A DNA stretch of 64,000 nt from Bacillota bacterium (GTDB taxonomy: Bacteria > Bacillota > Sulfobacillia > Sulfobacillales > JAIMBI01): positions 1-64,000 of the forward strand of contig JAJZWV010000005.1 of NCBI GenBank assembly GCA_021846505.1, in the 5' to 3' direction. A model generated the notes under the pieces. That model saw only the letters and a program-made list of their open reading frames with translations. It made no database searches and was not told the DNA's origin. Position numbers and translations under genes: made by a program. Position 1 is the first letter of the stretch; each line of letters opens with the position of its first letter. Below, one piece after another: positions 29,143 through 52,091 of this stretch.

Positions 29143-29163
29143 AGGCCCCTCCGTTCAGTCCTG

Positions 29164-32100: not shown

Positions 32101-33012
32101 GTCCGGCAGCAGCAGGTGCCGCTCCTCGGCCACCATGAGAAACAGGAGCCGATATATCAGCCGGAGCAATTCGCGGTAGTACTCACCGGCCGACAGCACG
32201 CCGCTGGCCGCGGCCGATCTTAGGGCGGCATTGTCGGGGTGCTGCAGAAACCCACTGCCCAAGGTGTCCAGGGCCTGCTTGACCCCGTCGCGCAGCCCGT
32301 CGCGGATGCGCCCCCCTTCACTGTGCGCCCGGCTGGCGTACTGCTCAATCCATGAGGTGGGCGCCGCGTCCACGCTCAGGGGAAACCGAGAGACATGGCA
32401 CAGCCGATACAGGGCGCGGAAATCGTCATACAGGCCGCCGTCCATCATGGCGGCCAAATCCCATTCTATAAAGCTGGGGCGCGCCACCCGCTGGGTGGCC
32501 CGCAAGAGCCACAGCTTTGCGCCATTGCTTAACAGGGCCCACACATGATCGCTGCGGTTCAAATACTCCTGCACCATCGCGTAGGGACTCCGCTTTTGGC
32601 CCTTGGCTTTCTGGCCCAGCGGTGTGGAGAAGCCGACCAGGTGCACCGGCAGCCCCTCTGGCCCACCACACCGGTGGGAAATGTGATACGTCTCGCCCGA
32701 TTCATTCACGGTGGCCGCTTGATTCTGATACACGAGCTCGTAGCCGAGCACGCGAAGCAGCGGGCGCAGCCACTGATCCCGCGTGGCGCCGGTATCGGAC
32801 CCCGCCACCCGATGCAGCGACAGCTGCAGGCTCTTCCAGGCCGACCGCGCTTCCGTCCAGGCGCGATTCAGCTCGGCTTCCAACTCCGCCTCGGCCGAGA
32901 AGCCAAACGCCTTGGCTCGCTGGTCGGGCTCCTTGCTTTCCAGCAGCTGCACCAAGATGTCCTCCGGCAGCAGCCCGCCCTCGGACCGGTAAGTGGTATA
33001 GGTCGAGTGCAT
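29164..33012 (-). CDS. N6-adenine DNA methyltransferase, large Eco57I/DrmMI/PglX-like
   Basis: SAM motif I 'VCDPACGSGHFLLAAARAIA', catalytic 'FDAVLGNPPWERVKLQQKEWF'; 1282 aa. Confidence 0.9.
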   Translation of the reverse strand: MHSTYTTYRSEGGLLPEDILVQLLESKEPDQRAKAFGFSAEAELEAELNRAWTEARSAWKSLQLSLHRVAGSDTGATRDQWLRPLLRVLGYELVYQNQAATVNESGETYHISHRCGGPEGLPVHLVGFSTPLGQKAKGQKRSPYAMVQEYLNRSDHVWALLSNGAKLWLLRATQRVARPSFIEWDLAAMMDGGLYDDFRALYRLCHVSRFPLSVDAAPTSWIEQYASRAHSEGGRIRDGLRDGVKQALDTLGSGFLQHPDNAALRSAAASGVLSAGEYYRELLRLIYRLLFLMVAEERHLLLPDSDDSSPYMFIYEEAFGMERLRRLVDHHATRSMPSGFSDLWQGLLSTFELFASHPDGESPLPIPALNGQLFSASALPHLMQAGLENHVLLAALRPITVLPGEERRRVNYAALDVEELGSVYESLLDYTPQWVQDGERWAFELSAGSDRKSTGSYYTPPELVGALIESSLSHLIEERKREPDPVSALLSLTVCDPACGSGHFLLAAARAIARAVAQARFQEQEPTPDQFRVALREVIEHSIYGVDKNPLAVDLCKVALWIEGHTPGQPLSFLDHRIRLGDSLVGVFDLQAPEVSVPDGAFLVKTGDDKAPAQRLKKRNTAEKRGVQHFESLDPRAADSWQLDALAQSYNQLDRMKSDSVDAVHAKESQYQQSRDLNPVWQRDWQRANLAVAPFFAELTPDNEMRVPTTVHLQQAARDQEVSNAVVAYANQLAREHHFFHWPLEFPEVFHRGGFDAVLGNPPWERVKLQQKEWFQARRPEVARAANRARRVESVERLQAEDPALWREFQQASHEAEAASGFARTSGRFPFGGVGDVNTYALFAELARDLMGPQGMAGVVVPTAIATDYTYRDFFGDLLKQRQLRSLYDFENRAKLFPGVHSSYKFGLLTLDSRPVERAHFGFFLEHVEDMRDRMRVFDLTRPDLVQVNPNTATCPVFRTRADAEITAGIYRRVPVLINEGTHENPWGIQFSRMMDMANDSHLFRSEPGPDRVPLYEAKMMHQFDHRWGTYDGGQVRDTTDAERSDPDFRVTPHYWVDKREVEERVPTDWHHQWFIGFRNITNATNERTVLAAVVPWAGAGDELPLVFPCEGSVASTTLMANLNSIATDYVARQKVGGTHLSYFLLKQFPILPPEAYSPADVAFITQRVVELVYTAWELQPFARDIGYDGAPFAWDPDRRAVLRAELDGYYAHLYGLSRTELQYILDPQSVKGSGFPGKTFPTLKRGELRAYGEYRTERLVLAAYDALAYRFQDRKRTQPAG

Positions 33013-36040: not shown

Positions 36041-36346
36041 TCAGCGTGCAGGCGCTCGCCGAGGGGGTAGGTCATCGGTGGGCCGCCGTGACCAGGGGCC
36101 GCAGGAGCCCAAGCGCAGGGCCCCGTACCACACGCCGCGAATGGCGCCAAACGACAGGATAGCAGCCTTCATGTACTCCGAGCAGGTTGGTCGGTAGCGA
36201 CAGCGGGCGGGCCGGCGCCCAGAGATCTCCCGCTGATAACGCTCTATGAGCCGCACCAGCTGCGCCGCCGCCCTGCCGGGTTTACTGGTGCTCAAGGCCG
36301 CTGTTCCTGATGGCCATCTGGACAATGCGCGCGGTCTCCTGGGCAT
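36041..36346 (-). CDS. yidD: YidD-family membrane protein insertion efficiency factor
   Basis: 'RLIERYQREISGRRPARCRYRPTCSEYMKAAILSFGAIRGVWYGALRLGSCGPW'; true start likely internal (~36256). Confidence 0.85.
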   Translation of the reverse strand: MPRRPRALSRWPSGTAALSTSKPGRAAAQLVRLIERYQREISGRRPARCRYRPTCSEYMKAAILSFGAIRGVWYGALRLGSCGPWSRRPTDDLPPRRAPAR

Positions 36347-36659
36347 TGGTCAGCTTCAGGGCGAACTCGGTTTTGGCCGTCCCCGAGGCAGTCACGATTC
36401 CACTGGTACGCCGCTGCCCGTCTACATGGACGGACGAGATTTGGCGCAGCGGGATGTCGACGTCATGATACTTCGTAGCCGCCAAACAGCCGCCGGGCTC
36501 AACCGCCAGCCCGCTGACCCGCGCATCTGTCACCAAAAACCACAGGCGGGGACCGGAGAGGCACCCGCCACCCCCTTCGCCATAGAACAGGACCCGTTCG
36601 CCATCTAAGAGACGCTGGGCAATGCGCGCAGGCAACCTGTAAATCGTCGCGTTGGCCAT
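36282..36659 (-). CDS. Small PH-like-domain protein
   Basis: 126 aa 'LLDGERVLFYGEGGGGCLSGPRLWFLVTDARVSGLAVEP...DIPLRQISSVHVDG'; strong AAAGGAGGTGG RBS before ATG 36659. Confidence 0.6.
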   Translation of the reverse strand: MANATIYRLPARIAQRLLDGERVLFYGEGGGGCLSGPRLWFLVTDARVSGLAVEPGGCLAATKYHDVDIPLRQISSVHVDGQRRTSGIVTASGTAKTEFALKLTNAQETARIVQMAIRNSGLEHQ

Positions 36660-36755
36660 CCGGCACCACCTCCTTTGGCCTTCACCTGGCTCCGCTCCAG
36701 GCGAACCGACACTCCTTAGCACTCCCCGGCTTCACCGCAAGGGCATGCTTGCCTT

Positions 36756-37637
36756 TCAGGCCGGCACGTACATGCCGCCTCCCACCTGCTTGAGCACCAG
36801 GATCCCACCGGATCCGCAATACTTCGGGTTTTTCAAATCAGACAGCGCGGTCTTCAGGGTCACCTCTTTGTAGCCCGCGGCAATGCCCGCGGCCATCACA
36901 AACTGGCCCGTCTCCGCCACGGTTTGCCGAATGAAGTCCTTGGCGGACCGGGTGGGAGTTGTTTCGCCTCTGGCGCAGTCCGGCACCGTTCCATACACCA
37001 CGACCCCACCAGACCCGGCTGACCAGATTTCCGCGTCGATTTCGCGGAGCGGAAGGTTCAATGAAGCCGCCGCTTTTTCGAAGAGGGCCACGGCATCCAA
37101 GGCGCTCACCGGATGGCCCGTCAGCTCCGTCGCCTTCTCTACGATGTACTTGTCCGGCTTCACGGTCTGCACGCCGCAAAACATGCGGAAGTACTGGAAG
37201 CCAGCGGGTCCGAAGCCGGGAACCCTGACGTGAAGATAGTCCTGCGGCCCGACAGATACCGCCCAGCGATGGAGCCTCTCCGCTTCGGTGGCGTCGGACT
37301 GCGCATCGGCAACCCGTTGGAAATAGGCACAGACCCCTTCTAAGGTGCGCCCTCGCCGCTTGTCGTTGTAATCGAGGTGTTCGCTGAGAAAGGGACCGCC
37401 GCCGCCAGACGACTGGATCAGGTCAGAGAGGTCGCCAAGGGAAATCAAACTGGGCTGACGTCTAGCCAGCGTCTGAACCCGGGGGAGCACCATCGACGCA
37501 TAGGGCCGATTCAACGACAGGACGCAATCCACCAAATTCAGCGCGGGCTTCATCCACCCGTAGTCATTGCGAGCGCGCACGGCCGAAAAGTTAGTCGCCA
37601 AATACTTCTTGACCGCGTCCAAGTCGTCTTGCCTCAC
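36756..37637 (-). CDS. HhH/DNA-glycosylase-like protein of unknown specificity
   Basis: 'VPGFGPAGFQYFRMFCGVQTVKPDKYIVEKATELTG' resembles HhH base-excision glycosylase cores; GGGAGGAAG RBS before GTG 37637. Confidence 0.5.
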   Translation of the reverse strand: MRQDDLDAVKKYLATNFSAVRARNDYGWMKPALNLVDCVLSLNRPYASMVLPRVQTLARRQPSLISLGDLSDLIQSSGGGGPFLSEHLDYNDKRRGRTLEGVCAYFQRVADAQSDATEAERLHRWAVSVGPQDYLHVRVPGFGPAGFQYFRMFCGVQTVKPDKYIVEKATELTGHPVSALDAVALFEKAAASLNLPLREIDAEIWSAGSGGVVVYGTVPDCARGETTPTRSAKDFIRQTVAETGQFVMAAGIAAGYKEVTLKTALSDLKNPKYCGSGGILVLKQVGGGMYVPA

Positions 37638-37773
37638 AGATCTTCCTCCCTGATGGCTGCGCGGTATCCGTTCCCCCCGAATGCCGTACCGGTCTACATT
37701 CCAACCATCGCCTGTGTCACCTTCCCACACCAGTGCCGAGTCAATCGGGCTGACTGGTTCAAGCCGCTCGCCC

Positions 37774-40700
37774 CTACTCCTGCAGCTTCACATGCTTGGG
37801 GGCCTTGAAGCCTTCTGAGTAGAACAGCCCCTCATATCGCTTTAGCGCCTTGAGGTCATCGGCGAGGCGGCGCGACGCGCTGCTAGCGGCCATGACCTTG
37901 GCCATCACTTTGGCGTCGCTCTCGTTCACACGCAGCGCGAGGTAAGACCCCACGGCGGTGTACATGGACTCTTCGAAGTCCCGGCTCTCCTGGGATGCTA
38001 AGATGAAAGCGATGCCGAACTTCCTGGCTTCCTTGGCCATGGTGCTGAGCAGGTGCAGCTTGGACGCCTTGTGCGCCTCGTCAAAAATGACGGCGTGGGT
38101 GATGCGCCGCTGAGTGCCACGCGCCAGCATATCCTGGTACAAGCTGTGCAGGACAAAAAGGGCAAACGCGGTCTGAACCCTCTGATTCCCGCTCCGGTGC
38201 AACTCGACCACCACCGGGTTTGGGTCATCCAGCAGGGAGCGCACCGGACCACCGGCCTCAAACAAGTCGTAGTCCGCCAGCTCGCCCAGCCGCTGCATGA
38301 TCCCATTATCGGGCTTGGGACTGGTCTTCAGGATATCGAAGAACCGCCGAAACTTCGGAATGGGCCCGCGCTGCGCGAGGGACCACCCGTGTTCCTGGTA
38401 CGACTGCTTCAGCGCCTCGCGAATCTGCCCCAGCTGCACATCGCCCAACTCGGGGAAAATCGCGCCAAAGATATCGCGAATCATCCCGACGTTGTCCACA
38501 TAGGGCTGAGACCCGGTGTCGGGCACAATCATGGGGTTGAAGCCCAGCGACTGATACGTCACCCGGCTCAGCGGGTCCAGGCGCTGACCCAGCTTCTCGT
38601 CCATGTCGTCGTGGTATGAAAACACAATCGGGATGACACCCTGCTCGGCCAGCTGGGCCGTGATGTTAATGAGCGCCGTGGTTTTCCCCATGCCAGGCAG
38701 ACCCACGACCATCAGGTGCGGGTTGGACTTCGTCGACACATGCCAATCCACTCGCTCGCCCGCCCTGGTGGTGCCCAGCACCGCTACCGCCTCTTGAGGC
38801 TGGCCTTCGGTCCCGTCGAGCGACTCTTCGGGTACGGTCCCCTGCGGGGGGCTGATTTCCGGCACCAGCGGTTCGGGCGGCCGCACATCCGCGGGCTTCG
38901 ATAGGGCCGGAGTCGGCCCTGACGCCGTGGAACACAGCCACATCGCGCCATCGCCCAGATCCATCGGCTGCTCACCCTGGAACTCCGGGGAGAAGATAAT
39001 GGCCTGATTCTGCCCGGTCAGCTCCACGGCGGCACTCACATCCCCCTCGCTGGCGATCAAGTCGGCAACTGAACGCTGGATGCGCTGATAAGCCTCCTGG
39101 TCAAGTCCGGTGTCGAGCGCCTGCTCCGCGTAAAACTGGATCAGCTGACCGAGGCGCATGCGATTCAGCATGCCCACGACGCTAGACGCATTGGGAGCGA
39201 GCATGCGCTGCCAAGCTTTGGTGGAGGCTTGGAACGCCCTCTCTGATGTCTCCATCTGCTCCGCGCGGTGGACTCCCAGCATGTAGCGGACGAACTCTAC
39301 CTGGAAGAAGCTGACCCTGAGGCCGCCCCGGCCGGCCTTGACGTATGCCAGAGTGTCCGCGATCCCCTCGCCCAAAATCTGCTGCACCTCGTCATGCGGA
39401 ATGAAAAACCCCTCGCCCAGAAAGGGCCATGGGTCCGCCGCCCCCCCATACTCTCGGCTGAACCGATAAAACACGGCCAGGCCAATCGCCCTTTGAACCA
39501 TGTGATCCGGGCTGGCGAGGCGAATCGCCGTGCGCCCACTCACGGCTTTTAGGTCTTCAAGCAAACTGGGGCTTCCGGGCTCGCTGGACACCGACACCCC
39601 CAAGTCCCGGGCATACTGCGCAAACGCCGCCTCCAAGCCGTCTGCCTTGGCTGTCGAGGTCACGAGCTGCAGTGCGCTCAAATCAGCACGCTCGGGCGCG
39701 CGGTCCACAATCACGGCCCGGTGTCCGCCCCTCAGGGCGGCAATGCTCGCCATCGACGCCGATGGCAGGTGCCGGTCTACGGTCACCACCCAATCGCAGG
39801 CGTCGTGCAAGTTTTGCAGCAACTGACGGCTTAGCCGATCCGCCGCCACCGTGAGCACCGGATGGGCCCCCGCTGCTCCGCCCATGCGCAGGGCCGTGAG
39901 AAGAGTCAAATGGGTTTGAAGTCGGATCACCCGGTCACTGAAGAGCCGCGCCACGGGATGCTTCTGCCCCTTTTCCGGGGCCGGCAGCCAGGAATCCCAC
40001 CTGTCCGCCCCGCCACCAGTGGTCGCCACCGGTTGGTACAAGCCGTAGGCGTGCAATGGCATCACCGGGGGCACCCCCTCCGTCAGGCGCGCAGCCGCTG
40101 TCAGCGGGTGAAATACGATGCCCACGTGGGCGGGCCGCATCGAGCCAGCCCCGTCCCGCTTCGCCCAGGTGAAGCGGGGCACGGACCGATTCCCCCTGCG
40201 GCTGATGGTCTCGTTCATCCACCGGTGATCCGCCGCGTCAGACTTGGATTGCCGGCGGAGGCGATTCGAACGCGAAAAAAACTGGCCAATCAAATCGTTG
40301 TCGGCATCGGCGCTTACCAGAAGATCCAGCTCCACCGCCACGTCCTGTCCAGGGGATTCCTCCTCCGACGGGTCCTCGTCGGCCACATTCTGCGTCCCGG
40401 CCTTTAAGGCATGCGCCAGCGCCGCCCCGTTCCCGGTCTTTACACCCAACACCTTCAACGTGTGATACTCGGGGTTCAGCTCTCGGTACCGCTTAAGTTG
40501 CTCCGCCACCAGGTCGGCCGTGGCTGCCGGGCGCGCGGACACCGACGCCGCGGCTCCTACATCGCCCCCATTCCACATGGTGGCAAATAACGCCACCGTC
40601 GACGTGGGGTCTGGGTCCTCCGCGAATATCATGGCCACGGCGTTGAAATCCAGCGCATCGCCGAAGACAAACGCCTGGCCCTTGTCCGGCCCCGGCATGA

Positions 40701-42621
40701 ACATCGGAAAATTTGCCCCGTCCAGCGGTGCCAGGACGGACGGCAACTCCTTCGCCGCCACCTCGCTCCCCTCGTACCGCACGTGGTCCACCAACTTCGC
40801 GAAGGCATGCTGCCACGCGACGCGCAGGGGATGCATGGGCAGGACGATTAAGCCGCGGCATGCGCCATCCGCGTCCTGCACTTCCACCGTGAAAGCCAGT
40901 GCCGAATCGGGATCGGAGCCTTCCAACACCGCTGCCCAGGCGTTGACGTATTCAGAGGGGTCATTGCTCCCGACCGGCACCCACGCCAGCACGGAGGGAC
41001 CCTGTTTCAAAGTTTCAGCCCACAAGCGCGTGGCGGTCTCTACGCGGGACCAATTCCCGGATGGCTCCCGGCCTGGAGCTATGGGCACAAACGTGGGGTG
41101 GTCCAGTAGCTCCCCATCAGAACGCACCCGCACCTGCCAACGGCCCACGGCTCCTCCGTGCTGATGCCAATCCTGCTCCACCACCTTGAGCAGGGGCGGA
41201 TACGCGACGGTGACTTGCAACGCGGGGGCCGCGGCGCGAATCACGCCTGCCTGCTCGGAGTAAACTCCTCGGCCATAGCGCTCGGCCAGCTCCAGAAAAG
41301 CATCACGGGTTGGGCATGTTGCCAAGCCTTCAACCATAGTGCGGGCGTTGGCCTTGGCCGTCTTCGCCGGGGACGCTTCGGCCTGTCCGAAATACACCAT
41401 GAACTGCTCGCTCCCCGGCGACTCGAAATGGCCAGCGCGCACCACCACTTCGGCAAAAAACTTATCGCCTTCGTCGATCTGAAAATCGGATCCGAGAAAC
41501 CGGCAATCCTGCACCGACTTGTCCCGGTGGGAGACCGATTTAGACGCCAGGATGTCTGTGCCTGACCTTATCTCCACTTGGTAGTCCACAAATCCTTTGG
41601 GTAGGTCCACTGGCTTCACCCGCCACCGGACCGTGAGTCGCTTGGAGTCTTCTGGGTGTTCGGCATCGATGACGTAGTGCAGTTCACCGCCCCGGTCCTC
41701 GAGCCCGCACCACCGGCCCAGCGCATTCTTTGTGTCGCTGCGCCATGGATCCACGCTCAGCGCGGCTAGTTCCCTCGGATCAAAGACGCCAATGGTCATC
41801 TGCCCCAGCCAAATCGACTGAAACCGAGGGTCCGTGGCAATCTGCATGGTGACCAGATGGGCCGGCTGGCGCTCGCCGAGGCGGCTTGCCTCGGTGAGCA
41901 ACTCATTTTGCTCGGTCGTGGGCTCATGCAGCAGCAGCGCCGCCACCCGCTCGGGCGCACTTTGCAGCGCCGAGTGCTCCATCAACAGCCGCGCAGATAG
42001 CTTGCGCGCCTCTTCAATGTCTTTTTCGGTCAGCTCTCGGTCGGCCCTGACCGGCCACAGGCCCAGCCACGCCATCGCACGGCCAAGGGCCCGGTGGTCG
42101 CTGGCTTGCGACTGAAACAGGAACTCCTGCCACGGGGGCAGGGGCCTAATGGCTCCAAGTCGTCGTGCCTGACCCTTCGCCTGCTTGATGAGCTCCCAGG
42201 TTCTGCGGCCCACTTGGGACGCCAGATGTCGGCTGGCATCATCAAAGAAGTGCTTCTCGTCTAACTCCCGGCCGGCACTGAAAATGCCGTCCATGCCGGC
42301 ATCCGGCTGCGATTCGTCAACCAGCAGGAGAAGCGGCCGCCGCTTCTCCTCCCGCAGCTCCACGGCGCGCTCACCGCGGATCCAGCTCGGGGAGTCACCC
42401 TGGCCCACACCGTAGACATCCCACTGCGGAACGTCAAAGTGCGGATGGGCCAACAGCGTCCGTATCACCCCGCCCGGCAAAAATCGGGCGTAGGCCACGT
42501 CTCCGGGAACTGCGGCCGGCAGCAGACGCTGAAAAGTCTCCGCGAGCATGCGAACTTGTGCATCCGTCAAGTCCAGGGCATCCAAATCCAGTCCAGCCGA
42601 TTCAACTGATGGAACGGACAT
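37774..42621 (-). CDS. Large protein with C-terminal HerA/VirB4-like P-loop ATPase (DptH/MAD8-like architecture)
   Basis: 1615 aa; 'NPHLMVVGLPGMGKTTALINITAQLAEQGVIPIVFSYHDDMDE' Walker A; 'ITHAVIFDEAHKASKLHLLSTMAKEARKFGIAFILASQESRDF' Walker B/sensor. Confidence 0.8.
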   Translation of the reverse strand: MSVPSVESAGLDLDALDLTDAQVRMLAETFQRLLPAAVPGDVAYARFLPGGVIRTLLAHPHFDVPQWDVYGVGQGDSPSWIRGERAVELREEKRRPLLLLVDESQPDAGMDGIFSAGRELDEKHFFDDASRHLASQVGRRTWELIKQAKGQARRLGAIRPLPPWQEFLFQSQASDHRALGRAMAWLGLWPVRADRELTEKDIEEARKLSARLLMEHSALQSAPERVAALLLHEPTTEQNELLTEASRLGERQPAHLVTMQIATDPRFQSIWLGQMTIGVFDPRELAALSVDPWRSDTKNALGRWCGLEDRGGELHYVIDAEHPEDSKRLTVRWRVKPVDLPKGFVDYQVEIRSGTDILASKSVSHRDKSVQDCRFLGSDFQIDEGDKFFAEVVVRAGHFESPGSEQFMVYFGQAEASPAKTAKANARTMVEGLATCPTRDAFLELAERYGRGVYSEQAGVIRAAAPALQVTVAYPPLLKVVEQDWHQHGGAVGRWQVRVRSDGELLDHPTFVPIAPGREPSGNWSRVETATRLWAETLKQGPSVLAWVPVGSNDPSEYVNAWAAVLEGSDPDSALAFTVEVQDADGACRGLIVLPMHPLRVAWQHAFAKLVDHVRYEGSEVAAKELPSVLAPLDGANFPMFMPGPDKGQAFVFGDALDFNAVAMIFAEDPDPTSTVALFATMWNGGDVGAAASVSARPAATADLVAEQLKRYRELNPEYHTLKVLGVKTGNGAALAHALKAGTQNVADEDPSEEESPGQDVAVELDLLVSADADNDLIGQFFSRSNRLRRQSKSDAADHRWMNETISRRGNRSVPRFTWAKRDGAGSMRPAHVGIVFHPLTAAARLTEGVPPVMPLHAYGLYQPVATTGGGADRWDSWLPAPEKGQKHPVARLFSDRVIRLQTHLTLLTALRMGGAAGAHPVLTVAADRLSRQLLQNLHDACDWVVTVDRHLPSASMASIAALRGGHRAVIVDRAPERADLSALQLVTSTAKADGLEAAFAQYARDLGVSVSSEPGSPSLLEDLKAVSGRTAIRLASPDHMVQRAIGLAVFYRFSREYGGAADPWPFLGEGFFIPHDEVQQILGEGIADTLAYVKAGRGGLRVSFFQVEFVRYMLGVHRAEQMETSERAFQASTKAWQRMLAPNASSVVGMLNRMRLGQLIQFYAEQALDTGLDQEAYQRIQRSVADLIASEGDVSAAVELTGQNQAIIFSPEFQGEQPMDLGDGAMWLCSTASGPTPALSKPADVRPPEPLVPEISPPQGTVPEESLDGTEGQPQEAVAVLGTTRAGERVDWHVSTKSNPHLMVVGLPGMGKTTALINITAQLAEQGVIPIVFSYHDDMDEKLGQRLDPLSRVTYQSLGFNPMIVPDTGSQPYVDNVGMIRDIFGAIFPELGDVQLGQIREALKQSYQEHGWSLAQRGPIPKFRRFFDILKTSPKPDNGIMQRLGELADYDLFEAGGPVRSLLDDPNPVVVELHRSGNQRVQTAFALFVLHSLYQDMLARGTQRRITHAVIFDEAHKASKLHLLSTMAKEARKFGIAFILASQESRDFEESMYTAVGSYLALRVNESDAKVMAKVMAASSASRRLADDLKALKRYEGLFYSEGFKAPKHVKLQE

Positions 42622-44413
42622 CGTGCACCTCCTGATGATGAAAGCGGGGCTGCAGCAGCTTCATGCTTTCCGAATCGTTGACGCCAACTAACAGGCCCAG
42701 GTCGCGGAGTCTCTGTTCCAACACCAGGCGATTGGTTCTCAGGAGATCGGCGGCGATGGGCATCCCCGGCGGCGCCACATCCACGAACAATCCATAGCGC
42801 AGGCGGAGAGTCTTAAGAAACTCAGCCAAGGTAAGCGCCCGCCGCTCGCAGGCACCGGTCGCCGTTACCGCCCATAGATGGCGATGGACCAGGTAGTCTA
42901 ACGTGGTGTTGCTAAGCACAAGCGCGCGGGCATCCGCGCTGCGCGGGACACCCGCCACGGTCTTTCGAACCCGCCGCTGCACCACCAGCCGATTGGGTGA
43001 GGCTTCGTCCGATACCAGCGAGGAACTGAGCAGCTGGACGAACGGCATTTCCCCGGCATAACCCATTAGCCGGGCCAAACCATCCGCCAGCCGCTGAACG
43101 GGATGAACCGCCGTTTCTTGCAACACCGCCATAACATCCTCTGGTCCTTGGCTCTTGCTCAACTCACTGCCCAGGCGGCGACATTGCCTGGCAGCCTGGT
43201 CGGACACTGCGGCGGCTCTCGGGTGCCGCGAATCCAACAGCCGCGCCAGGGCCACGATACGGTCACGGCCGTGCGGCGTGGAAGGTGGCAGCGTGCCCTC
43301 CAAATGCGGATCCTCCTCGGCAAGCTGTTCAAGTACGCGGTAAGTCATGAAGCAGGTGGGCAGCCGCCGCATCACCTGATAAGCATGCGCCATGGATTCT
43401 TCGGCCAGGTCGCGGAGCTCACGGCTGCTGCCGGCCGACGCGTCCACGAACAGTGGAACTCGCACCTCCAGCGGCACCGGTTGATAGGTATCCAGGATTG
43501 ACAGCGCCAACTGCGCACTGGCCAACACCATGACGGTGAGACCCACAGCGAGGGACGTTTCCAACATCGCCATCAGGGCATCTAGGGGGACGCTGTCTCC
43601 ATACTGCGCGAGAAGCACCCGAAAGTCTTCGCCAAATTCCTCGGCGGCCACGCGCGCCAGTGGCAGCTGATTGGCAATGGGCGCCGCGTCGCCCGGAGCC
43701 GGTTTGGGAGCTTCCCCCACGGCTTCTGCAATGCGCACCATCAGCGTTTGCTCCACCGACAAGCCATCGGCAGCCCCAGCACTGAAGGAATCGGCCGTCA
43801 GGGAGCTCGCTTTCCGCCCGCTCTCCACTGCCTCTCCAAACGACCGCAATAGGAGGTTCTCCTGGAAGCGACCCAGTGGAAAGGCGCCCGCCTCCCCCGG
43901 ACCCTGGGGCCCTCGTAGTACATCGCCATCGGGCTGGGCCGCCAGGATGGCCGCGAGCATATCTGAAAGGCCTCGCACGTCCACATACTGGGCCGGCAAA
44001 TCGAGCCAGCTGGCGAAGTAGTGCACGGGATAAGCACGGATGATAGGTGCCGCCCGGTCGGCGCTGTGGCGCTGCGCTTCGAGGCAGTGTGCCAGCACTA
44101 GGTCTCCTACTATCGCATCGGCGGCGGGCCCACGTGTGCCCACCCTGCTGGCTCCGACCAACCTCGACGCCACATCGTGGGTTGCGGCTGACTTGGCTCC
44201 CGGGGGAGCGAACGCGGCGCGGAACTGGCCCGATCCCCGCCGCACCCCGTGCCGAAACAAGTAAAACAGGGCGGGAAGCAAAGTTCCAATCGCGAACGAA
44301 TGCGGTTGGACCGGAAGCACCGGGTCATAATTAGATGTCCAGAGCCGACGGACCGTCGCGACGGTCAGGGCGTCCTCCGCATTTTTTCTATAGCTGCCTG
44401 TCGTTGATGCCAC
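42602..44413 (-). CDS. Tandem paralog 3 of unknown family (603 aa)
   Basis: 'VRRLWTSNYDPVLPVQPHSFAIGTLLPALFYLFRHGVRRG' and 'LRTNRLVLEQRLRDLGLLVGVNDSESMKLLQPRFH' shared with the two upstream genes. Confidence 0.9.
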   Translation of the reverse strand: MASTTGSYRKNAEDALTVATVRRLWTSNYDPVLPVQPHSFAIGTLLPALFYLFRHGVRRGSGQFRAAFAPPGAKSAATHDVASRLVGASRVGTRGPAADAIVGDLVLAHCLEAQRHSADRAAPIIRAYPVHYFASWLDLPAQYVDVRGLSDMLAAILAAQPDGDVLRGPQGPGEAGAFPLGRFQENLLLRSFGEAVESGRKASSLTADSFSAGAADGLSVEQTLMVRIAEAVGEAPKPAPGDAAPIANQLPLARVAAEEFGEDFRVLLAQYGDSVPLDALMAMLETSLAVGLTVMVLASAQLALSILDTYQPVPLEVRVPLFVDASAGSSRELRDLAEESMAHAYQVMRRLPTCFMTYRVLEQLAEEDPHLEGTLPPSTPHGRDRIVALARLLDSRHPRAAAVSDQAARQCRRLGSELSKSQGPEDVMAVLQETAVHPVQRLADGLARLMGYAGEMPFVQLLSSSLVSDEASPNRLVVQRRVRKTVAGVPRSADARALVLSNTTLDYLVHRHLWAVTATGACERRALTLAEFLKTLRLRYGLFVDVAPPGMPIAADLLRTNRLVLEQRLRDLGLLVGVNDSESMKLLQPRFHHQEVHDVRSIS

Positions 44414-44443
44414 CGATGCACCTCCCCGCGATCCTCGCCGGCT

Positions 44444-46222
44444 TTAGCCCACCGCAGTGCCTGCCGCATCCAGGCGTCTGAATCGCGGATGCAGCAACTT
44501 CATGGACTCCGCGTCGTTCACCCCGGTCAAAAGCCCCAAGTCCCTCAGGCGCCGCTCCAGCGCGCTGCGGTTTTGCCTCAGCACCTCGGCCGATATGGGC
44601 TGGCCCGGGGGCGCTGCGTCGACAAAAAACCCATATCGCTCGCGCAGGCCCGCCAAAAATTCGCGATAGGACACGGACCGGTGGGGAGAACTCCAAAGGT
44701 GGCGGTGCACGACGTAATCCAACACCCCATTGGAGAGCACCAGGGATCGCACCTCCGTGCTGCGCTGGACCCCACCGCGCGACTCCCTTGCCCTCCGCTG
44801 GGCCGCCAGCCGATAGGGCGCAGCCTCATCGGCAGTCAAGGCCGAGCTCAACAGCTTCACGAAATGGCCCTCCTGAGACACGCGTCCCATCATGCGCACC
44901 AACACCTCCGCCAGGCGCTGCACGGGATGGACGGCTCCATCCCTCAGCAAGTCCAACAGCTCGGAGGCTGAGTCCTGTTCTCTGATAGCCCGGGCCAGCT
45001 GATTGCATTGCACTGCGGCTCGCTCCCGGATAGTCGCGGACCGAGCATGGCGGCTCTGCAGCACATCCACCAACAGCCGCACGCGGTCAAAGCCATCGGG
45101 CGCTTCCGGTGGCAGTTCATCCGACAGTGCCTCGTCGACACCCGCCATCTCGTCCAAGATGCGCAGGACCATGAGGTCCAGCGGGGCACGGCGCACAAGC
45201 CGGTAGGCACCTTGCATGGACTCCTCGGCCAGTTCACGCAAGCGGTACTGGCCGCCCATCGACGCATCCACGAACAGCGGCCACTTGTCGGAACGCTCCG
45301 GGGGGGACACCGCTCCGCCGTTTAGAATGTTCCGAGCCAGTGCGGTGGACGCCAGCACCATGACGGCGAGCCCTATAGCGATGGAGCACTCCAGCATGTC
45401 CGTGAGCACTGTGAGTGGCATGATGTCGGCACCATTTATCAGCACCGTCTGAAAGTCGGCGGCAAATTCCTGGGCGGCGCCGGCGGCCAAGGGCCACTGG
45501 CCGCTGATGGCTTCAGCCGCCACCGGTGCCTCGCCCACGAGGCCCGCAATGCGCGCCATGACGACTTGCTCAGCCGACAGTGCATCCGCCGCCTCATCGC
45601 GGAACTGGTCCGCCGTTAAGGCGGACGGGCGGCCCCGCGTCTCGACTGCACCCGCAAACACCCGGAGCAGGGCATTGTCCTGGAGCGCCTCCGCCCCAAA
45701 CAGCCTGGGCGCGCCCGGCGCATGGCTAGGGCTGTGCCCAGGCGCCTGAGCGAGGGCAGCCGCCAGCGCATCCGGCACATAGCGCAAGTTGGAGTACTTC
45801 ACCGGTAGATCAAGCCAGCTGGCCAGGTAATGCGTCGGATAGGCACGAATGATGGGCTCGGCGCGGGCCGCACTGCGCTTCCGCGCCTCCAGGCAGTGGG
45901 CCAGGACCATGTCCCCCAGTATGGCGGGGCCGGCGGGGCCGTCCACCCGGATGGCGGGATGCTGCACTAGCTTGGCCGCGACGTCTTCGGCTCGAACCGG
46001 ACCGCCGTCCCCCGAGCTGAACGCGGGCGCGAACCGGCCACGTCCACGCCGCACGCCCCACCGAAAAAGATAAAACAAGGCAGGCAGCATGGTGCCAACG
46101 GCAAAGTCCTGCGGCTGCACTGCCAGCACCGGCGCGTAATTCACCGTCCAGAGACGGCGGACGGCAGAGGCCGACAGCACATCAGTGGCCAGCTGCCGAT
46201 CGCTCATCGCCTGTCTAGCCAT
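44444..46222 (-). CDS. Tandem paralog 2 of unknown family (592 aa)
   Basis: 'VRRLWTVNYAPVLAVQPQDFAVGTMLPALFYLFRWGVRRGRGRF', 'LRQNRSALERRLRDLGLLTGVNDAESMKLLHPRF'. Confidence 0.9.
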   Translation of the reverse strand: MARQAMSDRQLATDVLSASAVRRLWTVNYAPVLAVQPQDFAVGTMLPALFYLFRWGVRRGRGRFAPAFSSGDGGPVRAEDVAAKLVQHPAIRVDGPAGPAILGDMVLAHCLEARKRSAARAEPIIRAYPTHYLASWLDLPVKYSNLRYVPDALAAALAQAPGHSPSHAPGAPRLFGAEALQDNALLRVFAGAVETRGRPSALTADQFRDEAADALSAEQVVMARIAGLVGEAPVAAEAISGQWPLAAGAAQEFAADFQTVLINGADIMPLTVLTDMLECSIAIGLAVMVLASTALARNILNGGAVSPPERSDKWPLFVDASMGGQYRLRELAEESMQGAYRLVRRAPLDLMVLRILDEMAGVDEALSDELPPEAPDGFDRVRLLVDVLQSRHARSATIRERAAVQCNQLARAIREQDSASELLDLLRDGAVHPVQRLAEVLVRMMGRVSQEGHFVKLLSSALTADEAAPYRLAAQRRARESRGGVQRSTEVRSLVLSNGVLDYVVHRHLWSSPHRSVSYREFLAGLRERYGFFVDAAPPGQPISAEVLRQNRSALERRLRDLGLLTGVNDAESMKLLHPRFRRLDAAGTAVG

Positions 46223-46315
46223 CTTGGCCCACCCAGCGGTCGCGGCTCGGCGACGTGTGCGAATCCATTTGCATTGGCACCCTCCGTTCCTCTGACCACA
46301 CCTCGAGATACGTCA

Positions 46316-48106
46316 TCAGCTTGGGTCGTCCATGGGCGCACCCACGTGGCCGTGGAAGCGCGGCTGAAGAAACTTCATGGTCTCGGCATCGTTGACGCCT
46401 GCCAGCAAGCCCAAGTCCCGCAGCCGCCGCTCCAGCCAGTGCCGGTTTTGCCGAAGGTTTTCCGCGGAAATTGGCAAGCCGGGCGGAGCCGCGTCCACGT
46501 AGAACCCATAGCGCTGTCGCAGCAGCGCCAAGAATTGCCGGTAGGTGACCGGGCGGCGCTGAAGGTGGTCTCCGCCGTCTTCTTGCCACAAATGGCGGTG
46601 GACCAGGTAGTCGAGCGCCGTGTTGTTCAGGGTGAGGGATCGGGCTACGCCGCGCCGGGCGACGCCATCTCGCATTTTGGATACTCGGCGCTGGGCGGCC
46701 AATCTATAAGGGGACGCATCATCCGCCACCAAAGAGGACCCTAACAATTTCGCAAACCGCAATTCCTGGCTATTGGTTCCCATGAGCCGCACCACCACGT
46801 CGGCCAACTGCAGCACCGGATGTACAGACCGATCGTCCAAAACGGCCACCAAGTCCGAGAATGTCTCGTCTCTGACGCACGCCCGGGCGAGCTGGCGGCA
46901 GTAGACTCCTGCCCGGTCCCGTATGGCTGGCCCACGGTGATGCCTTTCCTTCAGCACATCCAGCAAAAACTGAACCCGAGGGTTCCCGTCGGGTGATGAC
47001 GGCGGAATGTCGGCGGCTAGCGCATCATCGTCCCGTGCCAGGCTCTCCAACACACGAAGCGTCATCAAGCTCACGGGAAGGCCCCTCATCAGGCGCTCGG
47101 CCTGGTCCATCGATTCTTCTGCCAGCTGACGCAGATGCGGGTGACCACCCTCGGACGCATCCACAAACAGCGGCCACGGCTCCCGGCTGGAGGCGTCGCC
47201 CCGTTCGTCAAACAGCCGGCGGAGTTGCCCGGCACTGCCCAACACCATGCGCGTGAGGCCTATGGCCAGCGCGCATTCGAGCATCGGGACCAGTGAGGGC
47301 AGCGGAATTTCCTCCCCGTATGCGGTTAGGAACACGCGAAAGTCTTCCCGGAATGCCGCAGCCGCCGCCCCATCCAGTGGCAGCTGATTCGGCATGGCCG
47401 TGCCGTCTCCCTGCGCGGGACGGGGCGCCATCTCAAGCTCCTGGGCCATGCGCACCATGGCCAGTTGGTCGGCCGACAGGGCATCGGCCTCGCCTTCCAC
47501 GAATCGGTCCGCCGTCAAGGCATAGCTGCGGTCGCCAACCTCCACCGCCGTGGCAAAGGTTTTCAGCAGCAAGTTGTCCCGCACAGAGCCCACGGAGAAG
47601 GGACTTGGCATCATGGCGTCCCTCGCTGAATCTGGCCTTCCCAGGATGGTGGCCAGTGCATCAGGCACATACCGCATGTGAGCGTACGCTTGAGACAAGT
47701 CCAGCCAGCTCGAAAAATAATGGCTCGGGTACGCCCGATCGATCGGGCTCTGGCGACTGGCACTGTGATTAACCGCTTCCAGGCAGTGTGCCAAAATTAC
47801 ATCGCCTAAAATAGCGGCGCCCGCTTCGACATGCACAACTACATCGGGGCGCCAGCTCAGTCGCTCGGCCACACCATCTGCCGTGGCTCTCCGCTCGCCC
47901 TTCCCATAGGTCTCTACAAACCGGCCCCGGCCCCGCGCCTCCCCGCGCCGCATCAGGAACAGCAGGGCAGGGAGCAGCGTGCCGACGGAGAAATCGCCCG
48001 GCTGCATCGGAAAGACAGGATCGTAATGCGCGGTCCACAGCTCGCGCACCATGGCCCGCGACAGCACGTCTTCCAGGATTGCCCGGTTGCCAATCGGCTT
48101 AGCCAT
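46316..48106 (-). CDS. Tandem paralog 1 of unknown family (596 aa)
   Basis: 'VRELWTAHYDPVFPMQPGDFSVGTLLPALLFLMRRGEARGRGRF', 'LRQNRHWLERRLRDLGLLAGVNDAETMKFLQPRF'; overlaps the kinase gene stop. Confidence 0.9.
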   Translation of the reverse strand: MAKPIGNRAILEDVLSRAMVRELWTAHYDPVFPMQPGDFSVGTLLPALLFLMRRGEARGRGRFVETYGKGERRATADGVAERLSWRPDVVVHVEAGAAILGDVILAHCLEAVNHSASRQSPIDRAYPSHYFSSWLDLSQAYAHMRYVPDALATILGRPDSARDAMMPSPFSVGSVRDNLLLKTFATAVEVGDRSYALTADRFVEGEADALSADQLAMVRMAQELEMAPRPAQGDGTAMPNQLPLDGAAAAAFREDFRVFLTAYGEEIPLPSLVPMLECALAIGLTRMVLGSAGQLRRLFDERGDASSREPWPLFVDASEGGHPHLRQLAEESMDQAERLMRGLPVSLMTLRVLESLARDDDALAADIPPSSPDGNPRVQFLLDVLKERHHRGPAIRDRAGVYCRQLARACVRDETFSDLVAVLDDRSVHPVLQLADVVVRLMGTNSQELRFAKLLGSSLVADDASPYRLAAQRRVSKMRDGVARRGVARSLTLNNTALDYLVHRHLWQEDGGDHLQRRPVTYRQFLALLRQRYGFYVDAAPPGLPISAENLRQNRHWLERRLRDLGLLAGVNDAETMKFLQPRFHGHVGAPMDDPS

Positions 48107-51100
48107 GGCGCGGCTCAGCCCGTGGCCGCACGCTTAGCACCTGCTGGATGTTGCCGTTCTCCTCCACCCGGTCGACGTCCACGGCGTAAACTTGCCGACT
48201 GTCGGAGGGGTTCCAGGCGAAGTAGTGCCGCCGCTGCTCCTGGGCTAGGCGCTGGGCAAAAATCGATAGGCGCGCATGGGTGTCTGCGCTCCTCAAGTCA
48301 AACCCGGGCCGAAAGCCCTCCTCCACCTCCAACAGCAACGAAAACAGCTCCAGGCCCATCTCCAAATGTTCACGCTGGCCCCCGTCGTAGGTATAGGCGA
48401 GGGACACTTCGGTATGGAGAGTGGGCACGCCTCGAAGGTCGGATGGCGGCACGCTCAAGGAAAATCCTTCATACGGCTTTTCCACCCAAAACACGCTTTC
48501 CGTGGCGGTGCGAGCCGGCACGCGCAGGGACACGCCGCCGCTTTGCTCCAGTGCAATTCGCGGCAAATCGTCCAGCGCCGACAGGCCCCGCACCAACCTT
48601 TGGCACAGCGCGTCGGTCTCATCGCGGGTCATGTGGCCCACCCTTCGGAACAAGTCCAAGTGGGCTCCGCCGACCAAGCTAGCCGCATCAGGATGGTCCA
48701 GAAAGTAACTTTGGCGCCTCAGGACCTCGAGCTTAGAGCCTGAGCCGCGCGCAAGCAGCTGGCGGTCCACCTCCGGCTCGGCCACTAGTGCGGGGTCTAG
48801 CAGGGTCAGCTCGGCGAGCACTTCTCCTTGGCGGTGTGGTGACTCCGGGTCAAACGCTCGGGTGGCAAACAGACTAACGGGAGAATCTGCAAGTTGTTGG
48901 TGGATCTCCTGGCATGTGTCGGTGCCAAATAGCACATAGCTTACGGTCGCTCGCAGCTCCCGAGTGGTGATGTGCACGGTGCCGCGGTGGTGGACGGCCT
49001 GCAACGCCTCGGTCAGCCGCTGGCGAACCAATTTCCCCTGAACCGGATCGCGGAGCGTGCGCACCGACTGGTAGGGCGAGCACCAGGCTTGGGCACTGCA
49101 CGTTCGGCACTGCGTCCATAGGTCCGCGGACGGGTTGGGGCCGTCTACCAGCACGCCAATTAGCTGCTCAAGGAAGTCTGCGCGCGTGCCTCCATCGTGG
49201 AGCGATCCGACCAGCGACCGCTGGTTCAAGTCCAAGATCCGAATGCGCGAATCCGCCACCGGGGTCCGGCCCAGCAGTGCGGCGCGAAGTTGGCTGGTAA
49301 GCCAGGTATCCTCGCCGTTCGCAAAGCGCTCCAGCCACGCACGCAGCGGGCCGCTGTTGATGGCCACCAACCGAACCCGGTGTGGAGAAAAGTTCCGGTC
49401 ATGAAACGGCTCAAACAGCTCGTCCAGCAACTCGGCCGACGTTTTCTCCCGATACGAGGCTGAGCCATCCAGATTGATCATCAGCTCGCGCCCATCCGGC
49501 AGCGATTGCTTCCAGATACGGTCAGCCGAGCGGGGTGGGGTGAGACCCAGTTCGTGGACCAAGTGCTGTAGCAGCGCCGTCTTGCCATCACCGGCATTCC
49601 CCAGCAGCACCACGAGATTTAAGTCACCATGCTGGATGTCGTCCCGCAGCACGCGGTCCAGCTCCGTCTCAATGTACGTGGACTCAGCAAACGCGGAGTC
49701 GAGCCCCCGGGTCTCGGCGTTCCCGTGCCTCGATCCCGGATACAGGCCCAGCAGTTCTAGCAGCCGCGGGGCCTCATTCCAGCCAAACGGCTGACCTGCA
49801 GGACGAATGTCCTCCACCAGCCCCTGGCCTTCACAGAGAAAACGCAGCCCATCATCGGCGTCGCGGAATCGCCGTGCGGCATCCGGGTCCGTGGCTCTGC
49901 GCACAAACGCGGCCGCTCGTTCCCAGTCGGACTCCTCCACCGCATCCCAGTTCAGCCCGCCCTCTGCATAAACCGGGCGGCTGGGGGCTGGCTCAAACAT
50001 CGCCTGAAACAGTGTCACGCCCAAGGCGTACATGTCGTAGGAGGCGTCGGCCAGCGCTGCCTCCGCGCCTGGGGGGCGCAATCCGGGTGTGGCGGCTACC
50101 GGGTGCTCATGTCCGCGCGTCACGGTGTCATAGTCGGTCAGCACCACGCGACGCCCCTGCACGATGATGTTGCTCAGCGATACGTCGCCGTGAACATATC
50201 CGACTCGGTGCAGGACTGCTAGCGCTTTGCACAAGTCCTCCAGCCAGCCCAAAAGCAGTTCGTCCTGGCTAATGCCTTCTTCCTCCGCCTGCAGTTCGAT
50301 AACCCCCTGGATGCTTTGAAGCGGGACGCCTTCCACCCACTGAAGCACCGCCACTGGTTGATTGGGATCCCAGCTGCTCGCTACTTCATGGACGGAAGCC
50401 AAGGAGGGCACCACCGAATACGGCCGCACGCGCCGGTAGGCGTCGACGGCCAAGGTGCCCATCTCACGGTCACGCATGACCTTGGCGACAAAGGGCCCGT
50501 GCTGCTCCCCATTGCGGACTTCCATAACCTTGTACGAAGTGCCATTGGCCCCCTGCCCCAGCATGGCCAGCACCAGATAATGCTCTCCCCGCGCTGTGAC
50601 GATCTCATCGTCTGCGGCCCAAAACTTTGGCGCCACTGGGATGCTAGTTGACGGCACCTCGTCAGGATCCTCGGCTAGCGGCGGGACCGGCAGTATAAGC
50701 TCCCTTAACCGTTCGGCCAGCTCCGCTGCGCTGCAGCGATCCGATGCCTGACCGCCCATGCCCGCTTCCAGGCACTCTCGAACCTGCGTTTCCGTTTCAC
50801 CGTGACCTACAAACAGCGTCCTTAAGGACTTGCAAAGGGAGAACACGTCGCTCTCGGCGGAGGCTTGTCCCAAACCACCCGCCGCGACCTCTGGTGCCAT
50901 CCACGGGTCAGAGACGACCTCATCGGCCCCCGCCGCGATGGTGGCAACTTGATCCAGCCGTGCCCATTGGAAACCCGTAAACATGGGATGGTTGCCGCCG
51001 CGCACCAAAATCGTTGACGGCGACAAGCCCCGATGAACCACGGGCTTCCCCGTGTGGCCACCTTCATGCATGGTGGCTAGGGCCTCGGCGCAACGCGTGG

Positions 51101-52091
51101 CAAATTCCAGCCGATCCGCGGGCAGCCAGTGCTCGTCGGTCGCGCGCTCGTCCAAGGTCGGAGCATCAGGGGCCACCACGCTGAAGAAGTACATCTCTCC
51201 CGCATAATTGGAGACCGCTTGGAAGGAGTCTACGATGATCGGCACAAAGGGGTGCCTGACCATTTCTTGCATGGCGCCCCACTCTCGCTCCGCGAGCCTC
51301 AGGGGGACCTTGTGGGGTGACGCCGACAAATCGTATGAGTGCACGATCCGCTTTTCCCGCTTGGTGCGGTGCACTCCCACGTAAACGCGGTGAAACAGCT
51401 CCTCCCGTGGGCTGATAAGCTCCAGGTTGATAATTTCCCCCAGGCGGCGAAGCGAACCGTGCACCATGGCTGCCTCCGGGCCGCCCAGCTCCCGAGCGAT
51501 GGCCTGGATCTTCACCGGGTCTAGCTGACCGGACTCATCCACGCGCAGCGCCAAGGACCAGTCTTCCTGGCTGAATACCTGGGGGTAGCGACGGCGGATA
51601 CCCGGAATTTTGCCGGTAGGTTTGGTCAGCAGCATAACGCCTGACACCCATTGGTTGGCGTCCAGTCGCTTGACGGGGCCCGAAGCGATCCTGGCCTTCA
51701 TTTCAAGCTTCTGCAGCTCTTCCTCAACGGTTGCCGGGTTTTCCTTGATGAACACTTCGTCCCAGTGCTTGACCTCAACCACGAAAACGCCTGAGGGTCC
51801 CACGACGAGTTGGTCCACTTCCAAGCGTCGGCCCTGGGAAGCCTTGAGCATTATGTTGGTGTAAATAAACCAGGGGCCATCCTCGCGCCCGCGCAGGCCC
51901 TTCAGCAGGAGCCTGGCCATTTGTTCCTCGCTCGCGGTGGCGAATTCCCCACAGGGAACATGACGAACCGACGGCATCTCGGCCACGAAACCGGCCCCTT
52001 TCACGGTTCCAGTTTGAGAGGTTCGACATATGGTGATGGAAATCTCTCGCAACCGTACGCCTTCGTTTCCCGGCCTGTCAACATCCGCCAC
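48099..52091 (-). CDS. NERD - pseudokinase - Ser/Thr kinase - P-loop NTPase protein (PglW/MAD6-like)
   Basis: NERD 'EVDQLVVGPSGVFVVEVKHWDE'; degenerate kinase 'VVHRGLSPSTILV'; second kinase 'GYVHGDVSLSNIIV...VVLTDYDTV'; Walker A 'LLGNAGDGKTALLQHL'; start uncertain (possibly ~51976). Confidence 0.88.
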   Translation of the reverse strand: MADVDRPGNEGVRLREISITICRTSQTGTVKGAGFVAEMPSVRHVPCGEFATASEEQMARLLLKGLRGREDGPWFIYTNIMLKASQGRRLEVDQLVVGPSGVFVVEVKHWDEVFIKENPATVEEELQKLEMKARIASGPVKRLDANQWVSGVMLLTKPTGKIPGIRRRYPQVFSQEDWSLALRVDESGQLDPVKIQAIARELGGPEAAMVHGSLRRLGEIINLELISPREELFHRVYVGVHRTKREKRIVHSYDLSASPHKVPLRLAEREWGAMQEMVRHPFVPIIVDSFQAVSNYAGEMYFFSVVAPDAPTLDERATDEHWLPADRLEFATRCAEALATMHEGGHTGKPVVHRGLSPSTILVRGGNHPMFTGFQWARLDQVATIAAGADEVVSDPWMAPEVAAGGLGQASAESDVFSLCKSLRTLFVGHGETETQVRECLEAGMGGQASDRCSAAELAERLRELILPVPPLAEDPDEVPSTSIPVAPKFWAADDEIVTARGEHYLVLAMLGQGANGTSYKVMEVRNGEQHGPFVAKVMRDREMGTLAVDAYRRVRPYSVVPSLASVHEVASSWDPNQPVAVLQWVEGVPLQSIQGVIELQAEEEGISQDELLLGWLEDLCKALAVLHRVGYVHGDVSLSNIIVQGRRVVLTDYDTVTRGHEHPVAATPGLRPPGAEAALADASYDMYALGVTLFQAMFEPAPSRPVYAEGGLNWDAVEESDWERAAAFVRRATDPDAARRFRDADDGLRFLCEGQGLVEDIRPAGQPFGWNEAPRLLELLGLYPGSRHGNAETRGLDSAFAESTYIETELDRVLRDDIQHGDLNLVVLLGNAGDGKTALLQHLVHELGLTPPRSADRIWKQSLPDGRELMINLDGSASYREKTSAELLDELFEPFHDRNFSPHRVRLVAINSGPLRAWLERFANGEDTWLTSQLRAALLGRTPVADSRIRILDLNQRSLVGSLHDGGTRADFLEQLIGVLVDGPNPSADLWTQCRTCSAQAWCSPYQSVRTLRDPVQGKLVRQRLTEALQAVHHRGTVHITTRELRATVSYVLFGTDTCQEIHQQLADSPVSLFATRAFDPESPHRQGEVLAELTLLDPALVAEPEVDRQLLARGSGSKLEVLRRQSYFLDHPDAASLVGGAHLDLFRRVGHMTRDETDALCQRLVRGLSALDDLPRIALEQSGGVSLRVPARTATESVFWVEKPYEGFSLSVPPSDLRGVPTLHTEVSLAYTYDGGQREHLEMGLELFSLLLEVEEGFRPGFDLRSADTHARLSIFAQRLAQEQRRHYFAWNPSDSRQVYAVDVDRVEENGNIQQVLSVRPRAEPRHG

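What the first reader, a model, noticed from the sequence alone, without database searches (positions are those of the whole stretch)
36282..52091. Candidate novel defence cassette: kinase / triplicated paralog / HerA ATPase / HhH protein / PH-like protein
Co-directional minus-strand genes with tight junctions run: NERD-pseudokinase-kinase-P-loop, three paralogs, 1615-aa HerA-type ATPase, HhH/glycosylase-like protein, PH-like protein. BREX2/Pgl contains a PglW kinase, but no PglZ phosphatase, PglY/BrxC or BrxL is visible here. MADS has kinase, unknown and ATPase genes beside a methylase. This locus may be a related but distinct architecture that uses the neighbouring N6-MTase.
Basis: partly seen in the sequence, partly recalled or inferred. 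Interest (0 to 1): 0.87.

Follow-up and report, generated by a model that had tools for sequence, protein, structure and literature searches.

The report
Kinase-armed DndFGH-type defence operon, triplicated DndG
This is a three-part bacterial anti-invader machine of the DndFGH kind (sensor-kinase, DNA-binding protein, DNA pump) in which the DNA-binding subunit has been triplicated and the pump's own DNA-cutting site looks dead, leaving a nuclease domain on the kinase subunit as the likely cutter.

Summary
In detail: seven co-directional minus-strand ORFs (52091-36282), three of them ~50%-identical paralogs. The core (NERD-pseudokinase-kinase-P-loop protein / paralog / 1615-aa HerA protein) recurs in the order F-G-H, 32-42% identical, at 15 other loci (two Rhizobium plasmids, Alphaproteobacteria, Chlorobiota, Verrucomicrobia, Geobacteraceae, one same-order genome) with varying flanks. 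Profile-profile, PADLOC and fold comparisons identify the genes as DndF/SspF, DndG/SspG and DndH/SspH relatives; the only significant PDB match of the modelled paralog is DndG (7exx). DndF fused to NERD plus inactive and active kinases is already described (PMC10853773), so the kind is known. It is not MADS (no specificity subunit in the genome), not BREX (no PglZ), not PT-Dnd (no DndC). The neighbouring N6-MTase belongs to a separate ARMADA type I operon. New here: (1) G is triplicated only in this genome; (2) the DndH REase motif (D..ExK, intact in all other relatives covering it and in four DndH/SspH) is eroded to D..QxE here and M..QxV in the sister locus, while HerA, NERD and the second kinase stay intact. 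Likely mechanism: a DNA-translocating defence complex whose remaining recognisable nuclease is NERD. Untested experimentally.

The parts
48099..52091 (-). F: NERD - pseudokinase - kinase - DndF/SspF-type P-loop protein (1330 aa)
   Evidence: Pfam NERD, Pkinase; MAD6 3.1e-48, PglW N-term; SspF 4.2e-17; hhalign to NERD/kinase-SspF proteins of the same phylum, E 7e-41 over 1018 columns
51738..51929 (-). NERD nuclease motif of F, intact (EVD..VVEVKHWD)
   Evidence: Pfam 8.7e-11; alignment across relatives
50682..51389 (-). first kinase-like domain of F, catalytic residues lost (VHRG instead of HRD, no DFG); limits approximate
49980..50585 (-). second kinase domain of F, intact (VAK, HGDVSLSN, DYD)
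   Evidence: Pkinase
48894..49679 (-). DndF/SspF-type P-loop domain (GNAGDGKT)
   Evidence: SspF stretch 805-1066
46316..48106 (-). G1: DndG/MAD7-like paralog (596 aa)
   Evidence: mad7 3.7e-7, SspG 1.1e-4
44444..46222 (-). G2: DndG/MAD7-like paralog (592 aa)
   Evidence: mad7 4.9e-8, SspG 5.3e-5
42602..44413 (-). G3: DndG/MAD7-like paralog (603 aa)
   Evidence: MAD7 2.8e-25; AF2 model matches DndG 7exx, E 4.9e-4, probability 1.00
37774..42621 (-). H: DndH-like protein with C-terminal HerA/FtsK ATPase (1615 aa)
   Evidence: mad8 3.2e-25, DndH 3.4e-14; DptH 7es4 in PDB by profile; hhalign to DndH/SspH E 1.7e-15 over 879 columns
39295..39357 (-). eroded REase motif of H: D1089 .. Q1107-V-E1109 where the other relatives have D .. 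E-V-K (sister locus L052 excepted)
37783..38784 (-). HerA/FtsK ATPase domain of H, Walker A GLPGMGKTT and Walker B IFDEAH intact
36756..37730 (-). P0006, 324-aa protein, likely co-transcribed; C-terminal ~70 aa shared with the tail of another protein
   Evidence: 43 bp behind H; 55% identity over residues 253-321 to L056:9970-10842; no family match
36282..36722 (-). P0007, 146-aa protein, unknown, likely co-transcribed
   Evidence: 33 bp behind P0006; no family match

Best explanation
The cassette is a stand-alone DndFGH-type counter-invader system of the kinase/NERD-fused subtype, with one DndF-like (F), three DndG-like (G1-G3) and one DndH-like (H) subunit. Shown by sequence: subunit identities, intact HerA ATPase, intact NERD and second kinase, dead first kinase, eroded H REase, triplication of G within this lineage. 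Inferred: F, G and H form a complex on DNA; the G subunits recognise target sequence or modification state; H translocates on or captures invader DNA; F senses infection through its P-loop part. Because the restriction nuclease of H appears to be lost in this lineage, cutting would be done by the NERD domain of F, gated by the kinase, so the domain proposed elsewhere as a 'backup' effector may be the main one. The three diverged DndG copies would widen or combine DNA recognition.
For: F-G-H order conserved at 15 other loci in several phyla with differing flanks. F homologous over its length to NERD/kinase-SspF proteins next to SspG, SspH, SspB- and SspC-like genes in the same phylum. G model hits DndG as the only PDB match under E 0.001. 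H aligned to DndH/SspH over residues ~700-1615. REase: RPD..IIECK of four DndH/SspH aligns with RAD..VEVK of relatives and with IAD..QVEF here; H keeps 41 of 45 family-invariant residues in 1300-1399 but 8 of 24 in 1100-1199. The sister locus L052 also lacks the motif (M..QxV) and has intact NERD and kinase. All three G copies keep as many family-invariant residues (92-95 of 121) as the single-copy sister (92), so none is decaying. Published reading of DndFGH as a stand-alone system and of NERD/kinase fusions: PMC10853773.
Against: No experiment has shown defence by this subtype. Curated NCBIfam cut-offs for DptF, MAD6 and MAD7 are not reached. The N-terminal ~700 residues of H were not matched to DndH, and the AF2 model of H 640-1285 was of low confidence and matched nothing, so the REase call rests on the profile alignment and motif. 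Some PD-(D/E)XK enzymes tolerate substitutions in ExK, so loss of activity is probable, not proven. P0006 could be the effector instead of NERD. Complex formation and kinase gating are inference.
Confidence: 0.62

Rival explanations
1. A MADS (methylation-associated defence system) variant: F, G and H are MAD6, MAD7 and MAD8 and work with a MAD2-like methyltransferase, here the N6-MTase at 33012-29164.
For: Best curated-family matches of F and G are MAD6 (3.1e-48) and MAD7 (2.8e-25); mad8 for H; an N6-MTase gene starts 3.3 kb downstream; some relatives sit next to MTases.
Against: Scores far below curated cut-offs (164.7 against 460; 89.4 against 410); no HsdS/MAD5-type specificity gene found in the genome; the MTase belongs to an ARMADA type I trio that stands alone elsewhere; H has a DndH-like middle region.
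Confidence: 0.15
2. The cassette and the neighbouring ARMADA type I operon form one composite system sharing self-recognition through ArmB methylation.
For: Same strand, 333 bp apart, both helicase/ATPase-rich; ARMADA works with neighbouring systems in E. coli (PMC12458937).
Against: Neither module was seen with the other at any other locus examined.
Confidence: 0.12
3. A decaying system: loss of the H nuclease and duplicated G genes reflect drift, and the locus no longer defends.
For: H REase eroded; region 1100-1199 relaxed.
Against: All large ORFs intact; HerA, NERD, kinase 2 and the family-invariant residues of all three G copies conserved; REase loss is shared with a sister lineage whose other parts are also intact.
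Confidence: 0.11

Closest known systems
DndFGH with NERD-inactive kinase-active kinase fused to DndF (Rakesh, Aravind, Krishnan 2024, PMC10853773)
   Same: Domain order of F; F-G-H gene order; DndG-like fold; DndH-like middle and HerA C-terminus; no linked PT-modification genes
   Different: Three G genes instead of one; G ~600 aa rather than 450-500; REase motif of H eroded; curated DptF model not reached
SspFGH with kinase-fused F and SspB/SspC-like genes (loci L047-L049, same phylum)
   Same: NERD/kinase-SspF, G, H in the same order
   Different: Those have SspB/SspC-like neighbours, an intact PD..ECK motif and one G
MADS (MAD6-MAD7-MAD8)
   Same: Kinase, MAD7-like and HerA-type ATPase components
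   Different: No MAD1-5 set; scores below curated cut-offs
BREX type 2 / Pgl (PglW)
   Same: NERD + pseudokinase + kinase front end
   Different: C-terminal half of F is DndF-like; no PglZ in the genome
ARMADA type I (PMC12458937): the neighbouring operon 35948-24091
   Same: Adjacent and co-directional
   Different: Separate module: RapA-like helicase, PglX-like MTase, YprA helicase

Membership tests
DndFGH / SspFGH restriction module | F-G-H operon in that order | tested here: met
DndFGH / SspFGH restriction module | DndF core: P-loop kinase with long lid and C-terminal alpha+beta domain | tested here: met
   SspF 4.2e-17 at 805-1061; hhalign E 7e-41; curated DptF cut-off not reached, 15.1 of 50 bits
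DndFGH / SspFGH restriction module | DndG fold (triple wHTH) | tested here: met
   only PDB fold match under E 0.001 is DndG 7exx, probability 1.00, TM 0.45 by target; N-terminal ~250 residues poorly modelled; sequence-profile match confined to the C-terminus, E 8e-5
DndFGH / SspFGH restriction module | DndH: multidomain N-terminus with TRD/inactive MTase, then REase, then HerA/FtsK | tested here: inconclusive
   residues ~700-1615 aligned to DndH/SspH E 1.7e-15; N-terminal part not matched; fold model of 640-1285 unconfident
DndFGH / SspFGH restriction module | catalytically intact REase in H | tested here: not met
   D..QxE instead of D..ExK; a departure of the H subunit, so the claim here is 'DndFGH-type variant', not canonical DndFGH
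Phosphorothioate Dnd/Ssp defence system (modification + restriction) | DndC-type PT-modification gene | tested here: not met
   no TIGR03183 match in the own genome; SspABCD not searched separately
MADS | MAD6, MAD7 above curated cut-offs | tested here: not met
MADS | MAD2 MTase and MAD5 specificity subunit in the locus | tested here: not met
   no Methylase_S in the genome; only generic mad2 similarity in the ARMADA MTase
BREX type 2 | PglZ present | tested here: not met
BREX type 2 | PglW above curated cut-off | tested here: not met
   53.1 of 990 bits
Anti-phage defence (function) | protection against phage or plasmid | not testable with these tools
   needs plating assays

The most novel reading that the evidence does not exclude
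A DndFGH subtype that has moved its cutting activity from the DndH REase to the NERD domain of a kinase-fused DndF, and that uses three diverged DndG subunits as a multi-specific or hetero-oligomeric DNA reader: a natural REase-less DndFGH showing that the 'backup effector' can be the main effector.
Probability: 0.35. Interest if true: 0.66.

Novelty: new variant of a known kind. Interest (0 to 1): 0.5.

Why it matters
How DndFGH works without a linked modification, and whether the NERD and kinase domains fused to DndF are backups or main effectors, are open questions raised in PMC10853773. A natural variant with a seemingly dead DndH nuclease but intact NERD and kinase, and a sister lineage with the same loss, lets that question be tested by single point mutations. 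The triplicated DndG offers a way to ask whether DndG sets target specificity.

Tried and rejected
Membership in MADS, BREX-2 and PT-Dnd tested and rejected as full assignments. The idea that the N6-MTase is the partner: examined through its plasmid relatives and rejected as unsupported. First genome scan with the three-paralog alignment found nothing, probably because its two peptide patterns were too narrow; repeated with an H alignment including Rhizobium, which worked. Viral-contig scan with the G alignment: no relatives. A 399-genome phylum sample gave only HerA-domain and DndH/SspH matches. AF2/Foldseek of H 640-1285: low confidence, uninformative. P0006 and P0007: no family match; P0006 no plasmid or PDB match.

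Full report
OBSERVATION. The reported ORFs are real and uninterrupted (translations). On the minus strand, in order of transcription: F 52091-48099 (1330 aa), G1 48106-46316, G2 46222-44444, G3 44413-42602, H 42621-37774 (1615 aa), P0006 37730-36756, P0007 36722-36282. Overlaps or gaps of at most 93 bp join them; a 333-bp gap then precedes the next operon. F carries NERD and two kinase-like domains and a P-loop part matching SspF/DndF. The three middle proteins are 49-52% identical to each other. H ends in a HerA/FtsK-type ATPase. The labels 'HhH/glycosylase-like' and 'PH-like' for the last two genes got no support. P0006 shares its C-terminal ~70 residues with another protein (L056:9970-10842) whose sequence contains an EVK motif by eye.

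CONSERVATION. tblastn in plasmids found full-length relatives of H and G on two Rhizobium plasmids, where NERD-kinase, one G and H follow each other. A genome scan with an H alignment returned 14 loci from Chlorobiota, Verrucomicrobia, Alphaproteobacteria and a Geobacteraceae MAG. Twelve of them carry F-G-H in the same order, some cut by contig ends (L025, L034, L036) or split by stops or an insertion (L030, L035); L028 shows only H at a contig end and L033 only a distant H. One genome of the same order has F-G-H too (L052/L053). That makes 15 loci besides the window. Identity to the window is 36-40% for F, 34-42% for G and 32-35% for H. Every other locus, and every one of ten genomes re-searched whole, has a single G. 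In the G tree the three window copies form one clade (support 1.0) with L052 as sister (0.998), so the triplication arose in this lineage.

FLANKS. The neighbours of F-G-H differ: type II MTases (L022, L023), an MTase plus a ResIII-type helicase (L024, L032), type I restriction genes (L031), a type IIG-like enzyme some kilobases off (L021), plasmid-partition genes (L026). The three genes therefore behave as a module of their own. In the window, 35948-24091 encodes a RapA/BrxHII-like helicase, an N6-MTase and a YprA-type helicase. Close relatives of that MTase sit with helicases of the same two annotated kinds and without F-G-H on Chroococcidiopsis, Nostoc, Acidithiobacillus and Chlorohelix plasmids. 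This composition and order fit ARMADA type I (PMC12458937).

IDENTITY. F: MAD6 3.1e-48, PglW 1.1e-14, SspF 4.2e-17. G: MAD7 2.8e-25, SspG ~1e-4. H: mad8 3.2e-25, DndH 3.4e-14. None of the NCBIfam matches reaches its curated cut-off. Loci L047-L049 in the same phylum carry kinase-fused SspF, SspG, SspH and SspB/SspC-like genes. Profile-profile alignment of the window family with these gives F E 7e-41 over 1018 columns, H E 1.7e-15 over 879 columns, G E 8e-5 at the C-terminus. An AF2 model of G3 (mean pLDDT 62.7; C-terminal half confident) has one PDB match under E 0.001: DndG, 7exx, E 4.9e-4, probability 1.00. The genome has no match to DndC, PglZ or a type I specificity subunit. So it is a DndFGH-type module, not a full MADS, BREX or PT system. 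The fusion of NERD, inactive and active kinase to DndF, and DndFGH as a stand-alone system, are published (PMC10853773; also noted in PMC12839542).

WHAT IS UNUSUAL. (1) Three G genes. All three keep as many family-invariant residues (92-95 of 121) as the single G of the sister locus (92), so none looks decayed. (2) The REase of H. In four DndH/SspH proteins the motif reads RPD...ECK, and it aligns with RAD...EVK of the window family; in the window it reads IAD...QVE, in L052 GGM...QVV. All other relatives that cover the region, including the distant L033, keep D and ExK. The loss is local: H keeps 41 of 45 family-invariant residues at 1300-1399 (HerA) but 8 of 24 at 1100-1199. NERD (D..ExK), kinase 2 and the F P-loop are intact in both the window and L052. 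Kinase 1 is dead in the whole family. Because window and L052 are sisters, the loss of E and K may be one ancestral event rather than two.

MECHANISM. Shown: domain content, motif states, order, lineage of the triplication. From published knowledge: DndFGH has nickase and translocase activity (abstract of PMC11662687) and PMC10853773 proposes sensing by F, DNA recognition by G and HerA-driven capture by H. Inferred: with the H nuclease apparently gone, NERD is the only recognisable nuclease of the operon, so it probably cuts, under control of the kinase; the three G copies broaden or combine DNA recognition. P0006 as an alternative effector is not excluded.

LIMITS. No expression or phage data. 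Searches covered one successful scan of GTDB representatives that finds only loci with given peptide patterns, plasmids, and samples of one phylum; multi-G loci elsewhere may exist. PD-(D/E)XK enzymes can tolerate motif changes, so REase loss is probable, not proven. The H middle-region model was uninformative.

Noticed in passing
window 24091-35948 (-): Complete-looking ARMADA type I operon in the order seen in cyanobacteria: RapA/BrxHII-like helicase, PglX-like N6-MTase (NPPW motif present), YprA-type helicase whose C-terminus looks Vsr-like by eye.
   Followed up: partly
window 18024-22589 (-): 1521-aa reverse transcriptase fused to a nitrilase-like C-terminus (PADLOC RT-nitrilase 5.4e-32, UG5-nitrilase 1.6e-25), a DRT-type defence gene in the same island.
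   Followed up: no
window 22874-24020 (-): Gene pair HTH/DUF433 and PIN-like (PIN_10): toxin-antitoxin-like pair between the ARMADA and RT genes.
   Followed up: no
window 61152-62507 (+): 451-aa protein with HSDR_N nuclease and RAMA domain, outside the cassette.
   Followed up: no
L047, L048, L049: Same-phylum loci with kinase-fused SspF, SspG, SspH followed by SspB- and SspC-like genes: kinase-fused restriction genes combined with Ssp-type modification-related genes.
   Followed up: partly
L052 15566-19999 / L053: Sister H protein with an eroded REase motif (M..QxV) and one G gene.
   Followed up: yes
L035, L030, L034: F-G-H loci with in-frame stops or an insertion inside G or H (L035 H is split, with ORFs related to L021 mobile-element genes nearby), suggesting some copies are broken or misassembled.
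   Followed up: no
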